Source: Pyxidicoccus parkwaysis (GTDB taxonomy: Bacteria > Myxococcota > Myxococcia > Myxococcales > Myxococcaceae). From it: a DNA stretch of 64,000 bases. The DNA lies in the NCBI RefSeq assembly GCF_017301735.1, contig NZ_CP071090.1:12569001-12633000 (forward strand). The letters run 5' to 3'. Each line of letters begins with the position of its first letter. The first letter of the stretch is position 1. The notes beneath the pieces were generated by a model. It saw only the letters and a program-made list of their open reading frames with translations, was not told where the DNA came from and searched no databases. The position numbers and the translations under genes are program-made. This document shows positions 33,316 through 42,589 of this stretch, piece by piece.

Positions 33316-33483
33316 TGCTAGTTGTCACGAGAAGGCGGGGAGGCGTCCCGCCCTGACCACCACGTGACACCGGCCCCGACGTCGTGCGGTTTCGCTTCGA
33401 GCCGCCGGGTAGGGTGCCTCGCGGGGAAGCCGGGCCGCCGGCCGTTGCCGGGTGGCGCACGGGCTTCCGGGGAGGGCCGTGTC

Positions 33484-33897
33484 ATGTCCTTGCTCTCTGA
33501 GTTCAAGGCATTCGCGCTGAAGGGCAACGTGGTGGACCTGGCGGTGGCGGTGGTCATCGGCAATGCATTCTCGGCCATCGTCAGCGCGCTGGTGGCGGAC
33601 CTGGTGATGCCCATTGTCGGACTGGTGCTACCCGGCGGGGACTGGCGCGCCGCCACCGTCACGCCGCTTCAGTTGCGCATCGGCCACCTGCTGGGCGCGA
33701 TACTCGACTTCATCATCATCGCGGTGGTGCTGTTCATCATCGTGGTGAAGGTGGGCACGCTGTGGCGCCGCAAGGAGGCGCCCGCCGCGCCCACGACTCG
33801 CACGTGCCCCGAGTGCGGAGAGACGATTCCCCTCACCGCGCGGCGCTGCCGGGCCTGTACGTCCGTGGTCGCGCCCGTCGCATCCACACCCGCCTGA
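33484..33897 (+). CDS. mscL: MscL-type mechanosensitive channel with a C-terminal zinc ribbon
   Basis: This 137-residue protein has the MscL start FKAFALKGNVVDLAVAVVIG, first helix, periplasmic loop and second helix (to about residue 98). Instead of the usual amphipathic C-terminal helix it carries a treble-clef or ribbon-like motif, CPECGETIPLTARRCRAC (about 107-124). MscL opens to relieve osmotic downshock. ATG 33484 gives the normal family start. The zinc ribbon replaces the cytoplasmic bundle and could alter gating or recruit a partner; that is inference. The upstream 33315-33484 stretch is GC-rich without an obvious operator. Confidence 0.9.
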   Translation: MSLLSEFKAFALKGNVVDLAVAVVIGNAFSAIVSALVADLVMPIVGLVLPGGDWRAATVTPLQLRIGHLLGAILDFIIIAVVLFIIVVKVGTLWRRKEAPAAPTTRTCPECGETIPLTARRCRACTSVVAPVASTPA

Positions 33898-36955: not shown

Positions 36956-39900
36956 TCAGGTGCCCGCGCCGGGGTCCACCCACAGGTCCTCGAAGCGCAC
37001 CTGCGGCGGCGTCTGGTGCAGCCGCAGGCCCTGCACGGTGGGCATGGCCGCCGCGTGGATGCGCTCGTGGAACAGCGGGATGAGCGGGCAGTCCTCGTGG
37101 AAGAGCTTCTCCGCGCGCACGTAGAGCTGCTGTCGCAACCCCGGGTCGATGGACACGCGCGCCTCGGACGTAATCCGGTCCAGCTCCGGGTTGCGGTACC
37201 CCAGCGGGAGCACCGTCTGCGCGTTGGAGTTGAGCAGGAAGTAGAGGAACGTGTCCGGGTCCGGGAAGTCCGCGAGCCACCGGCTGCGGAAGGCGGGCAG
37301 CTTCCCCTCGCTGCCCCGGGCCGTGTACTCCTCCTGGGACATCCGCACGTGCCGCAGCTCCAGGAGGCCCGCCTGAATCAGCGGGCGGAAGAGCACCGCA
37401 TCCTCGGCGTTGGGGTCCTGGTCGGCGGGGTGGTACAGGGTGAGCTTCAGCCGGCGCAGGCCCGCGTCGCGCAGCAGTTGCTCCGCGAGCGCCACGTCCG
37501 GCACGGGTGACTGCCCCGTGTCCGGGTCGTCCAGCAGCTCCGGCGGAGTGAGCGTGCGCGCCACGCGCGCGCCCGGGTGGAACTGCTCCACCATGCCCTG
37601 GATGTCCATGCCCGCGCGCAGGGCCCGCCGCACGCGCACGTCGTCGAACGGCGCCTCGCGCTGGTTGAGCACCACGAAGGCGGTGGACGGCGTGGTGCTG
37701 GTGACGACCTGGAAGGACTCCAGGCCCGGCACCTCCACGTGCTCGGCGGAGAGGAAGGAGACCAGGTCGAGCGTGCCCTGCTTCAGCCGCGCCACCGCCT
37801 CCTGCCGCGAGTTGACGAGCTGGAACTCCATCCGGTCCACCAGCGGCCCGCCGGTGCGCCAGTAGGCGGGGTTGCGCTCCAGCACGACGCGCTCCTGCTC
37901 CAGCGCGTTGAGGCGGAAGGGGCCGGTGCCCACCAGCCGTCCGCTGGTGTCCACCCGGGCCACCGCCGTAGCGGTAAGCGCCATGATGTGCAGGAAGAAG
38001 GCCTTGGGCTCGCGCAGGCGGATTTCGAGCGTCCCGTCGTCGAGCGCCTCGATGCCGGACACCTCGCGCGCGAGGCCGGAGGCGAACTCGGGCGCGCCCT
38101 CCACGTCCTCCAGCAGGCTGCGGTCCGGCGAGCGCACGGCCGGGTCCAGGAGCCGCTCCAGGTGGCGCTTCACGTCGCTCGCGGTGAGCAGCGTGCCGTC
38201 GTGGAAGGTGACGCCGCGGCGCAGGTAGAAGCGGTAGCGCTTCGCGGACGGGTCCGCGTCCCAGCGCTCGGCGAGGTCCGGCTCCAGCCCGCCGTCCTCC
38301 AGCCGCAGCAGGCTGGAGAAGATGCACGAGGTGAGCTCGGAGACCTGGTTCTCCACGCTGAAGAGCGGGTCCACCGCCTGCCGGTTGCGCAGCGACGCTG
38401 ACTGGTGCAGGCCCACGCGCAGCGTGCCGCCGGCGCGCGGCGTGGGCAGCTTGAAGCGGAACACCTCCGCCTCCAGGCCCAGCGCTTCGTGGCCGAGCTG
38501 GTCCACCGTGCGCGTCAGCCCGTCGCCGATGCGGATGACCCGGCGCGCGTCCTCGCGCACCTGCGCCACCTCCTCGCGGATGGAGGCGTCGCCCTTGGTG
38601 AGCACCACGTTCGCGGAACGCAGCTCTTCGATGGCCGCGCTCAGGCGCACCACGGACTCGGACAAGTCGCGTCCGGTGCGCGCCTGGGCCTCGGCCTTCT
38701 GCGAGGCGCTCTGGCCCACGCGCGCCATCTCGTGCGTCTGTCGGACCAGCTCGCGGGCATGGCCGGACTGTTCAATCGCCATGCGCGTGACGTCCTCCAC
38801 GCGGCGGGCGACGCGGCGGCTGGCCTCGACGACGGTGGTGCCCTGGGTCTCCAGGCGCTGCGTCTCGGCCACGGTGGCCTCGACGGCGGTGAAGGTGCGC
38901 TGCGTAATCGTGCGAATCTCCACCAGCGCCTCGGCGGCGCGGTCTCCGAGGGCCACACCCGTGGTGGCCTGCTCGCGGCCCTCCTGCACCAGCGTCACGG
39001 CGGTCTGCACCGCGTCGCGCACGCCGGCCACCATGGCGGCGATTTCGCGCGTGGAGCGCGTGGTGCGCTCGGCGAGGTTGCGAATCTCGTTGGCGACGAC
39101 GCCGAAGGGGCGTCCGTGCTCACCGGCCTGCGCGGCGATGATGGCGGCGTTGAGGGCGAGCAGGTTCGTCTGGTCGGCGATTTCCTGGATGACGTCGACG
39201 ATGCGGCCGATTTCGGTGGAGCGGTTGCCGAGCGTCCCCATCAGCTCGGCGGCCTTGCGGACAGTCTCTTCCACCCGGTACATGCCCTTGACGCTGTCGC
39301 CCACGAGCACCTCGCCGCGCTCGGCGGTGGCCGTCACGGCGATGGCGAGCTGGTTCGTCTCGCTGGCGCGGCGGCGCACGGAGTCGATGCCGCCCTCCAC
39401 CGCGGCCACGAAGTCCTCGGCCTCGCTGGCGAAGCGGCCCAGTTCGTCACCGGACGCGGCGATGTTGGCGAGCCGCTCGGCCATGGCCTGCATCAGCGCG
39501 CTGGTGTTGTGCGCGAAGGTGTTGACCTGCGTCAGCGAGTCCACCACCTGCTCCAGGCGCTCCGTCATCTCCAGGAGCGCGCCGGTGGTGTCGACGGCGA
39601 AGACCTCCAACTGGTGGACGCGCTTGACGGCGACCTGGAGGCTGCCGCCCATGCCGCTGACGGCTTCGAGGGTGCGCTCCACGGCGCCGCCCTGACGGCG
39701 CGCGGCTTCGAGGAGCATGCGGGCCTGCTCGCTGACCTCGTTGCTGGTGCGGTGGAGGTTGGCCGTCACGCGCTGCACCTGGGACAGCGCGCGACGCAGC
39801 GAGAGGATGAGGCGGCGCACGTCCTCGGCGCCCTCGTAGCGGGCGCTGACGGTGGTGGTGAGGTCGCCCTCGGCGAGCCGGGCCATCACCCGCCGGCGGA

Positions 39901-40102
39901 GGCGGCGGCGCTGGGCGGCCCAGCGGAACCACGCGAGGTAGCCGCCCAGGAGGTAGAGCGCGGGCGTGGCGATGAGGAGCACGGCCCAGGTCGGGTCCGG
40001 CAGCTCGGCGCCATGAATGGCCCGCAGCAGTCCCCCCAGGACGAGCGCGGAGATGAGGCCCGCCGCCAGGCCGAACGCGAACAGGTACCGTTTGGCGCCC
40101 AT
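36956..40102 (-). CDS. Chemoreceptor-like signalling protein fused to an SBP_bac_5 solute-binding domain
   Basis: This 1048-residue protein has two N-terminal helices (about 6-26 and 38-58) with only a ~10-residue outside loop. A HAMP/coiled-coil region and a methyl-accepting signalling domain follow, whose tip reads QTNLLALNAAIIAAQAGEHG (311-330; canonical Glu replaced by Ile). From about 556 to the end is a complete type-5 (oligopeptide/dipeptide) solute-binding protein: TPRAGGTLRVGLHQSAS, YRFYLRRGVTFHDGTLLTAS, GTGPFRLN, LERNPAYWR. By topology this binding domain should be cytoplasmic, which is unusual. No CheR/CheB tail or che genes are adjacent. ATG 40102 is used. It may couple a cytoplasmic ligand to a chemosensory array; that is inference. 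Confidence 0.88.
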   Translation of the reverse strand: MGAKRYLFAFGLAAGLISALVLGGLLRAIHGAELPDPTWAVLLIATPALYLLGGYLAWFRWAAQRRRLRRRVMARLAEGDLTTTVSARYEGAEDVRRLILSLRRALSQVQRVTANLHRTSNEVSEQARMLLEAARRQGGAVERTLEAVSGMGGSLQVAVKRVHQLEVFAVDTTGALLEMTERLEQVVDSLTQVNTFAHNTSALMQAMAERLANIAASGDELGRFASEAEDFVAAVEGGIDSVRRRASETNQLAIAVTATAERGEVLVGDSVKGMYRVEETVRKAAELMGTLGNRSTEIGRIVDVIQEIADQTNLLALNAAIIAAQAGEHGRPFGVVANEIRNLAERTTRSTREIAAMVAGVRDAVQTAVTLVQEGREQATTGVALGDRAAEALVEIRTITQRTFTAVEATVAETQRLETQGTTVVEASRRVARRVEDVTRMAIEQSGHARELVRQTHEMARVGQSASQKAEAQARTGRDLSESVVRLSAAIEELRSANVVLTKGDASIREEVAQVREDARRVIRIGDGLTRTVDQLGHEALGLEAEVFRFKLPTPRAGGTLRVGLHQSASLRNRQAVDPLFSVENQVSELTSCIFSSLLRLEDGGLEPDLAERWDADPSAKRYRFYLRRGVTFHDGTLLTASDVKRHLERLLDPAVRSPDRSLLEDVEGAPEFASGLAREVSGIEALDDGTLEIRLREPKAFFLHIMALTATAVARVDTSGRLVGTGPFRLNALEQERVVLERNPAYWRTGGPLVDRMEFQLVNSRQEAVARLKQGTLDLVSFLSAEHVEVPGLESFQVVTSTTPSTAFVVLNQREAPFDDVRVRRALRAGMDIQGMVEQFHPGARVARTLTPPELLDDPDTGQSPVPDVALAEQLLRDAGLRRLKLTLYHPADQDPNAEDAVLFRPLIQAGLLELRHVRMSQEEYTARGSEGKLPAFRSRWLADFPDPDTFLYFLLNSNAQTVLPLGYRNPELDRITSEARVSIDPGLRQQLYVRAEKLFHEDCPLIPLFHERIHAAAMPTVQGLRLHQTPPQVRFEDLWVDPGAGT

Positions 40103-40164: not shown

Positions 40165-41244
40165 GTGGCCGCTCTGCTCGCCTTCCTGCTCCTTGCTCTC
40201 CCTGCGAAGCCCGCGAACCCGGATGAGGTGGGAGGGTTGCATCCACCCCGTGAGGAGACGCGCTTCGTCTTCGCCTGGAGAGGGGTGCCGGTGGGGACGG
40301 TGACGCTGACGCTGGAGGGAGGGCGCTTCACGTACTCGAGCCGGCACCTGCACACGCGCGACGGACAACCAGGCGAGCGTCGACGCGAGGTGACGCTGGA
40401 GGTGGATGGAGCGGGGAGGGTGCGCGGCGCGGAGCAAGGCCGGGCTTCCAGCGCGGAGCGGGCGCGTGACGGGCGGGGGGCGGTCTCCGAGGTATTCCCT
40501 CAAGCACTTTGGCTCTGGCGCGGCCCGCCGCCGGTGGGCTGCGTCACCGCGCGCGAGGAACTGTCGGGCCTGGAAGGGCCGCACTGTGTCACGCGCGTGG
40601 AAGGCTCACGGGTGGAGGGCACCCTGCTGGGCTCACCCTTCCGAGCGAGCTACGGGGAGAAGGGACGCCTGGAGACGCTGGACGTGGGTGACTCCCGCTT
40701 CACCGTGGCGGCTCCCGGCACGCGCCTGCGCTCACCGCCCGAATTGTTCGCCCAGGGTCTGCCGGTGGAAGGCACGCACGGAGCGCTGGCGCTGGAGCCT
40801 CCGCTGGAAGTCTCCGCGAGACTCGAAGGCATGACGCCCTGGGACGCGGGCGCGGCCCGGGCCCTGTCAGCGCGAGTCCACGCGGCCTTCACGGACAAGG
40901 CCCCCGGAGCCGCGGACTGGAACGAGAACGGCGAAGGCGAGGCGGGCGGCTGTCTCGCGCACGCGCTCCGCTTCGCCGCCCGAGCCCGGGAGCGCGGCGT
41001 GAAGGTGGCGCTTGTCCACGGGCTGCTGGTGGTGGACGGAGGCCCCGCGCGGCCACACGCCTGGGTGCGCGTAGCGCTGGCGAAGGGCGGGACGTTGGAC
41101 CTGGACCCCACGTCGCTCGACGCCGTGAGGCCCGACACGCACCTGCCGCTCGCGCTGGAGGAAGCGCGAGGGCCGGCACTGGAGGCGGGACGCCGCTGGC
41201 TCGAGTTGCTGCGCGGGGCGCACCGCGTGGTGCGCCGGCCGTGA
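40165..41244 (+). CDS. Exported transglutaminase-like domain protein
   Basis: This 359-residue protein has a signal-peptide-like N-terminus, a beta-rich middle, and a C-terminal transglutaminase-like core with a plausible Cys-His-Asp triad: C263 in EAGGCLAHAL, H298 in RPHAWVRV and D314 in LDLDPTS. Such domains cleave or crosslink peptides. The GTG at 40165 opens the signal peptide. It is divergent from the MCP-SBP gene (62-bp gap) and converges on astA with stops 3 bp apart. Function is inferred from the triad layout. Confidence 0.75.
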   Translation: MAALLAFLLLALPAKPANPDEVGGLHPPREETRFVFAWRGVPVGTVTLTLEGGRFTYSSRHLHTRDGQPGERRREVTLEVDGAGRVRGAEQGRASSAERARDGRGAVSEVFPQALWLWRGPPPVGCVTAREELSGLEGPHCVTRVEGSRVEGTLLGSPFRASYGEKGRLETLDVGDSRFTVAAPGTRLRSPPELFAQGLPVEGTHGALALEPPLEVSARLEGMTPWDAGAARALSARVHAAFTDKAPGAADWNENGEGEAGGCLAHALRFAARARERGVKVALVHGLLVVDGGPARPHAWVRVALAKGGTLDLDPTSLDAVRPDTHLPLALEEARGPALEAGRRWLELLRGAHRVVRRP

Positions 41245-41247
41245 CGG

Positions 41248-42273
<1,026 letters not shown>

Positions 42274-42589
42274 GGGTGCACCGGGGACGCCCCCTTCAGA
42301 GGGGGTGCCGGAAGGGTGGGGACCATACACCACGCCTGCCGGCAGTCAGCCTCCTGGTTGCCCGCCCCGTCGCCTTGTGCACTGCGTCAGCGCGTGTGTG
42401 CCCGCCCGGCCGGAGACCTACTCCGAGTGTGCCAGGAGTGAAACACGTCTCACGGCCCTCGGGCGCTTGTCTGGCTGATTGCCCTGTTGTCAGGGCAGCG
42501 GGAAGGAATTGGCCGGGAAATGAATCACGGAATGCCTTGCGGTACGGTGTGTCAGTCGTTTGTTGTCAAACCTTCCCAAGGACACACCA
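42274..42589. other. 316-bp divergent intergenic region
   Basis: It separates astA (minus) from the lyase gene (plus). It holds a short hairpin close to astA (CCCCC 42290-42294, TTCAGA loop, GGGGG 42301-42305) and a perfect 7-bp stem TGCCCTG/CAGGGCA (42480-42486, 42491-42497). The 90 bp before the lyase start are less GC-rich (GAAATGAATCACGG) and probably contain its promoter. No gene is seen. Confidence 0.5.
42480..42497 (+). promoter_or_regulatory. Inverted repeat TGCCCTG-TTGT-CAGGGCA
   Basis: A perfect 7-bp inverted repeat with a 4-nt loop lies about 95 bp upstream of the lyase start. It could be an operator or an RNA hairpin; the short loop allows either. Confidence 0.3.

What the first reader, a model, noticed from the sequence alone, without database searches (positions are those of the whole stretch)
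36956..40102. Chemoreceptor signalling domain fused to a complete peptide-binding (SBP_bac_5) domain placed in the cytoplasm
The protein has two N-terminal helices with only about 10 residues outside, a full MCP signalling domain with an altered tip (Glu to Ile in NAAIIAAQA), and a full ~490-residue solute-binding protein at the C-terminus. SBPs normally work outside the membrane; here topology puts it inside. It could be a receptor for cytoplasmic peptides, or the SBP fold could have become a partner-binding module.
Basis: partly seen in the sequence, partly recalled or inferred. Interest (0 to 1): 0.8.

Follow-up and report, generated by a model that had tools for sequence, protein, structure and literature searches.

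The report
Chemoreceptor with built-in cytoplasmic peptide-binding domain
This myxobacterial sensory protein joins a standard chemotaxis-type signalling rod to a complete peptide-transport binding protein on the inside of the cell membrane, so the cell may be tasting what it has already taken in; the same fusion is kept in nearly all Myxococcaceae, where it was catalogued in 2014 as McpK but its sensing role was never worked out.

Summary
Window 36956-40102(-) encodes one intact 1048-residue protein: a two-helix membrane hairpin with a ~10-residue outer loop, a HAMP-like stretch, a long MCP signalling rod, and a complete OppA/DppA-type solute-binding domain at the C-terminus.

It is not an artefact. 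Relatives occur in most Myxococcaceae and in a few other Myxococcota (92 of 195 phylum genomes match). The rod and the 13-residue junction have no insertion or deletion in 39 orthologs down to 35% identity.

There is no further membrane helix, so the binding domain should be cytosolic. OppA's two terminal-charge anchors (D419, R413) are kept as D945 (38/39) and R939 (37/39). Cytosolic SgrR and nickel-binding NikA lack both.

The architecture is not new as such: the M. xanthus ortholog is McpK (MXAN_6456; PMC3945109), and cytosolic SBP_bac_5 sensors exist (SgrR, DsvR). The 'altered tip' is shared with a McpJ-like paralog, so it is not specific.

Most likely it is a membrane-anchored chemoreceptor that reads a cytosolic peptide-like ligand and signals to a Che system (Dif proposed). 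Ligand and output remain untested.

The parts
36956..40102 (-). McpK-like fusion gene, 1048 aa: membrane hairpin, HAMP-like region, MCP signalling rod, C-terminal SBP_bac_5 domain
   Evidence: full-length orthologs
40028..40084 (-). TM helix 1 (residues 7-25)
   Evidence: hydropathy peak KD 2.21, Hessa -0.61; AF2 helix 2-30
39926..39982 (-). TM helix 2 (residues 41-59); followed by a strongly basic stretch, mean net charge +4.2 for residues 60-75 across orthologs
   Evidence: charges
39773..39940 (-). HAMP-like region (residues ~55-110); no Pfam HAMP hit, but helix-connector-helix in AF2 and, from residue 73-75 on, aligned to the stretch after the second hydrophobic segment of the McpJ-like paralog
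38813..39331 (-). MCP signalling domain by Pfam (residues 258-430)
39110..39151 (-). Hairpin tip NAAIIAAQAGEHGR (residues 318-331); identical NAAIIAAQA in the McpJ-like paralog L079/L002
   Evidence: AF2 turn at 327-330
38426..38461 (-). Junction between C-terminal rod helix and SBP domain (residues 548-559); the 548-560 stretch has constant length in 39/39 orthologs
36959..38425 (-). Solute-binding domain (residues 560-1048), OppA/DppA fold
   Evidence: AF2 pLDDT 90.7; VIA-align Z 37 to DppA, OppA, AgaA; profile hits to PDB
37268..37270 (-). Asp945, equivalent of OppA Asp419 / DppA Asp408 (binds peptide alpha-amine)
   Evidence: conserved 38/39; absent in SgrR and NikA
37286..37288 (-). Arg939, equivalent of OppA Arg413 (tripeptide carboxylate)
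   Evidence: conserved 37/39; absent in DppA, SgrR, NikA
40165..41244 (+). Conserved divergent neighbour: probably exported transglutaminase-like protein (359 aa); functional link not shown
   Evidence: Pfam Transglut_core3 2.9e-6; near McpK in most Myxococcaceae loci

Best explanation
It is the McpK chemoreceptor of myxobacteria: an inner-membrane-anchored MCP with essentially no outer sensor, whose sensory domain is a complete OppA-like solute-binding protein on the cytosolic side. Shown here: the intact fusion, its conservation, two membrane helices only, the predicted OppA/DppA fold, the conserved anchor residues, and a rod and junction of fixed length. Inferred: because an MCP rod is an antiparallel hairpin, its C-terminus returns to the membrane-proximal end, so the SBP hangs beside the HAMP-like region just under the membrane. 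When it closes on a cytosolic ligand, most likely a short peptide or another molecule with a free amine and carboxylate, it shifts the C-terminal rod helix against the HAMP-like bundle. The change travels down the rod to CheW/CheA at the tip. The likely role is to report the pool of imported peptides, in a bacterium that lives on protein, to the Dif or another Che system.
For: Fusion conserved: 92 of 195 phylum genomes match over 26 genera, including 36-48% identical full-length relatives outside the family. Two TM segments only and a basic flank after TM2, so N-in/C-in. The outer loop is too short to bind a ligand in every ortholog, leaving the SBP as the only candidate sensor domain. SBP fold complete. 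D945 and R939 match OppA D419 and R413 and are kept in 38/39 and 37/39 orthologs, whereas SgrR and NikA lack both. Rod arms (211 and 228 residues) and the 13-residue junction have no length change in 39 orthologs, while the SBP itself does vary in length, as expected for mechanical coupling. SBP under purifying selection, dN/dS 0.24-0.47. All M. xanthus MCPs, McpK included, carry the CheW-binding motif; McpK is class 44H like DifA and was proposed to signal to Dif (PMC3945109). McpK is not in that paper's list of deletion mutants without any defect.
Against: No ligand, signalling or localisation data. Several OppA side-chain contacts (E32, Y109, W397, Y485, R404, H371) are not kept. The Asp motif is common among peptide SBPs, so its conservation is partly family background. 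The SBP evolves about 3-5 times faster than the signalling core. No peptide transporter genes lie next to McpK. In my alignment McpJ-like L079 and L086 have the same rod length as the DifA candidate, so rod length does not single out Dif.
Confidence: 0.6

Rival explanations
1. The SBP fold is a protein-docking module: it recruits a partner (another chemoreceptor, a CheR/CheB-type enzyme, or a transporter part) to the membrane-proximal end of the rod, and no small ligand is sensed.
For: Many OppA side-chain contacts are lost; the SBP evolves faster than the rod; no transporter genes nearby.
Against: The two charge anchors are kept at 37-38 of 39, which docking does not require. Fixed 13-residue junction suggests coupling rather than a tether.
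Confidence: 0.15
2. Ligand sensor, but for a non-peptide cytosolic metabolite (amino acid, sugar phosphate, polyamine or opine-like compound), as in SgrR and the AgaA/AccA branch of the family.
For: The best structural match includes the opine binder AgaA (Z 37.9, tied with DppA and OppA). SgrR is a cytosolic SBP_bac_5 regulator of glucose-phosphate stress. AstA (arginine succinyltransferase) lies within a few kb in most loci.
Against: Both OppA terminal-charge anchors present, both absent from SgrR.
Confidence: 0.2
3. The SBP lies outside the cell through an unusual topology or an extra membrane helix.
For: PMC3945109 Table 1 lists 3 TMHMM helices for the M. xanthus protein.
Against: Only two hydrophobic segments in 12 orthologs spanning the set, none after residue 60. 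The MCP tip must be cytosolic to bind CheA/CheW and nothing between tip and SBP looks able to cross the membrane.
Confidence: 0.03
4. Frameshift or assembly join, or a decaying relic.
For: One species (G002) has an 11-bp shortening of the junction that splits the gene into two frames.
Against: Same fusion in dozens of genomes; dN/dS well below 1.
Confidence: 0.02

Closest known systems
McpK (MXAN_6456) of Myxococcus xanthus, orphan MCP (PMC3945109)
   Same: Same length (1048 aa), same domains, no HAMP call; the M. xanthus AM003 locus is 86% identical over the full length.
   Different: Nothing in architecture. In the passages I read, that paper lists the SBP domain and 3 TM helices but does not discuss its cytosolic position, fold, pocket or distribution.
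SgrR / DsvR, HTH transcription factors with a C-terminal SBP_bac_5 domain (PMC13060122 and references)
   Same: SBP_bac_5 domain used in a cytosolic regulator, C-terminal to the output module.
   Different: Output is DNA binding, not a chemoreceptor rod; soluble; SgrR lacks the Asp and Arg anchors that this protein keeps.
OppA / DppA periplasmic peptide-binding proteins
   Same: Fold (Z about 37), alpha-amine Asp and, for OppA, the tripeptide-carboxylate Arg.
   Different: No export signal of its own, fused to an MCP, no cognate permease nearby, cytosolic; most side-chain pocket contacts differ.
McpJ-like receptor of the same genome (L002/L079) and DifA
   Same: Same tip (McpJ-like) and same rod length in the aligned region; the McpJ-like protein ends EVRRFRV where this one continues EVFRFKLP into the SBP.
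   Different: No SBP; the McpJ-like protein has an outer region of over 100 residues between its two hydrophobic segments.

Membership tests
Methyl-accepting chemotaxis proteins | MCPsignal domain with hairpin tip | tested here: met
   PF00015 E 2.9e-32, 39/39 orthologs; helical hairpin with turn 327-330 in AF2, low local confidence
Methyl-accepting chemotaxis proteins | CheW/CheA binding and control of kinase | not testable with these tools
   Tip strongly conserved (residues 301-320, 97% mean); all M. xanthus MCPs carry the CheW-binding motif per PMC3945109
Methyl-accepting chemotaxis proteins | HAMP domain (common, not universal) | tested here: inconclusive
   HAMP not among the 25 most matched Pfam families of the 39 members; alignment to a paralog and AF2 shape suggest a degenerate one
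SBP_bac_5 solute-binding proteins, fold | Complete OppA/DppA-type fold | tested here: met
   PF00496 E 2.3e-67; AF2 pLDDT 90.7; Z 37 over 460-476 residues
ABC-transporter substrate-binding proteins | Export signal and extracytoplasmic location | tested here: not met
   Domain follows the MCP rod directly; two N-terminal TM helices, N-in/C-in by prediction
ABC-transporter substrate-binding proteins | Cognate permease genes nearby | tested here: not met
   None among the surveyed neighbours
Peptide binders (OppA type) | Asp for alpha-amine; Arg for carboxylate | tested here: met
   D945 38/39, R939 37/39
Peptide binders (OppA type) | Peptide binding | not testable with these tools
   needs a binding assay
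McpK (MXAN_6456) orthologs | Same architecture, length and synteny | tested here: met
   86% identity to M. xanthus AM003 over 1-1048 and same neighbours as the window; length 1048 and SBP domain in PMC3945109 Table 1

The most novel reading that the evidence does not exclude
A chemoreceptor that tastes the cytosolic pool of imported peptides through an internalised OppA-type domain mechanically coupled to the membrane-proximal end of the rod, letting a predator steer motility or matrix production by what it has already digested and taken up.
Probability: 0.35. Interest if true: 0.72.

Novelty: new variant of a known kind. Interest (0 to 1): 0.5.

Why it matters
MCPs usually sense outside the cell or through small PAS-type domains inside. 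A full transport-type binding protein used as a cytosolic, C-terminal sensor, conserved across a family of predatory bacteria, would be a different way of wiring nutrition to social behaviour. The M. xanthus mcp genes have been deleted systematically (PMC3945109) and candidate pocket residues are now named, so the question can be tested directly.

Tried and rejected
Artefact (frameshift, assembly join): rejected by orthologs in dozens of genomes. Tip substitution as a special feature: rejected as specific, since the McpJ-like paralog has it. Fusion elsewhere: tblastn against 72,556 plasmids gave no place covering 80% of the protein; of the best-covered hits, the two inspected (H1 Allorhizobium, H2 Rhizobium) are adjacent MCP and SBP genes, not fusions. 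The genome-contig scan used strict peptide patterns and found only Myxococcaceae-type loci, so fusions in other phyla are not excluded. Operon logic: neighbours of distant orthologs show no common peptide transporter. Assignment to Dif by rod length: inconclusive. DppA Arg355 and Tyr357 fell in gaps and could not be mapped. Paper searches found no functional study of MXAN_6456 in the held library beyond PMC3945109.

Full report
Observation. The minus-strand frame 40102-36956 encodes 1048 residues with no stop. Pfam finds MCPsignal at 258-430 (2.9e-32) and SBP_bac_5 at 606-961 (2.3e-67). NCBIfam models of OppA, SapA, DppA, GsiB, NikA and, weakly, SgrR all touch the C-terminal part but far below their cut-offs, so the domain is a divergent family member.

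Not an artefact. In the window's own genome (13.2 Mb, one contig) there is a single full-length copy. A search of 61 relatives, then of 195 genomes of the phylum, gave 92 genomes with a match at E below 1e-60, mostly full length (a few are cut by contig ends): the whole genus, 88 of the 96 family genomes listed, and G037 (48%), G044 (37%), G163 (36%) and G164 outside the family. Several genomes of one genus have two copies. In a single species, G002, the junction is 11 bases shorter than in its relatives, which breaks the frame between the domains; this may be a real lesion or an assembly fault.

Topology. Across the orthologs tested only two segments are hydrophobic enough to span the membrane (window protein: 7-25 and 41-59); the best other windows are well below. 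The outer loop is about 10 residues. The N-terminal tail is positive, the loop close to neutral, and the stretch after TM2 strongly positive (+4.2 on average), so both ends are predicted inside. AlphaFold2 gives helices 2-30 and 36-77, a HAMP-like connector and second helix, a long hairpin with its turn at 327-330, and a C-terminal helix that ends at 547, just before the SBP. The rod part of that model has low confidence.

The binding domain. Folded alone it reaches pLDDT 90.7 and matches AgaA, DppA, OppA and MppA at Z about 37 over 460-475 residues, 20-24% identity. Aligned with E. coli OppA, DppA, NikA and SgrR (taken from the MG1655 record), OppA Asp419 and DppA Asp408 fall on D945 (38 of 39 orthologs), OppA Arg413 on R939 (37/39), OppA Trp416 on W942 (39/39); OppA Lys307 becomes His842 (36/39). 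NikA and SgrR have neither the Asp nor the Arg. Most other OppA side-chain contacts differ. The roles of these OppA and DppA residues are from my knowledge of the crystal structures, not from a tool.

Coupling. The rod arms (residues 110-320 and 321-548) and the 548-560 junction have exactly the same length in all 39 orthologs, down to 35% identity, while the SBP varies by several residues. A tether would not need this; a mechanical coupling would. Nei-Gojobori dN/dS is 0.02-0.12 for the signalling core and 0.24-0.47 for the SBP (codon bias makes the absolute values rough).

Tip and array. The tip NAAIIAAQAGEHGR differs from the usual NAAIEAARAGE at two charged positions. Of the 27 MCPs in the genome, only this one and a McpJ-like protein showed it in the tips that could be extracted (the tip pattern was not recovered for about ten of the 27). 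Matches to that paralog recur across the family. The tip therefore marks a receptor subgroup rather than this fusion. The McpJ-like protein ends EVRRFRV at the point where the fusion reads EVFRFKLP and goes on into the SBP, so a complete MCP was joined to a complete SBP.

Context. In most Myxococcaceae the gene lies next to a divergently transcribed, probably exported transglutaminase-like gene and near astA; no peptide permease was seen nearby.

Known work. In M. xanthus the ortholog is McpK, MXAN_6456, 1048 aa, an orphan MCP with 'Bacterial extracellular solute-binding proteins domain'; it was placed in Group 1 with DifA, Mcp7, McpJ and McpB, assigned class 44H with DifA, and proposed to signal to Dif (PMC3945109). 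[quoted passage not shown] the figure is not available to me. SBP Pfam domains as cytosolic or receptor sensors are recognised as a class (PMC9602780), and SgrR/DsvR are transcription factors with a C-terminal SBP_bac_5 domain (PMC13060122).

Judgement. Architecture, conservation and cytosolic placement: near certain. Ligand sensor: probable. Peptide as ligand: somewhat better than other small molecules. Output through Dif: suggested by others, not settled here.

Noticed in passing
window 40165-41244 (+): Probably exported transglutaminase-like protein, divergent from McpK with a 62-bp gap; kept next to McpK in most Myxococcaceae loci.
   Followed up: partly
window 41248-42333 (-): AstA (arginine N-succinyltransferase) is within a few kb of McpK in most loci, sometimes on the other side, including a locus outside the family (L053).
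   Followed up: partly
window 33322-33897 (+): MscL mechanosensitive channel with a C-terminal zinc-ribbon-like CPECG...CRAC tail (Pfam zinc-ribbon hits below cut-off).
   Followed up: no
L054 5658-8829 (genome G002): The McpK junction is 11 bp shorter than in relatives, splitting the gene into two frames between the MCP and SBP parts.
   Followed up: partly
L030 (BNCN01000012.1): Record titled 'Comamonas sp. KCTC 72670' carries a Myxococcus-type McpK locus (86% identical), so the organism name looks wrong.
   Followed up: no
L062 and L063 (genome G108): Two diverged McpK copies in one genome (and in others of the same genus); only one keeps the usual neighbours.
   Followed up: no
L052 9292-11657 (+): In a distant relative the genes divergent from McpK encode a TPR protein and a Peripla_BP_6 solute-binding protein.
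   Followed up: no
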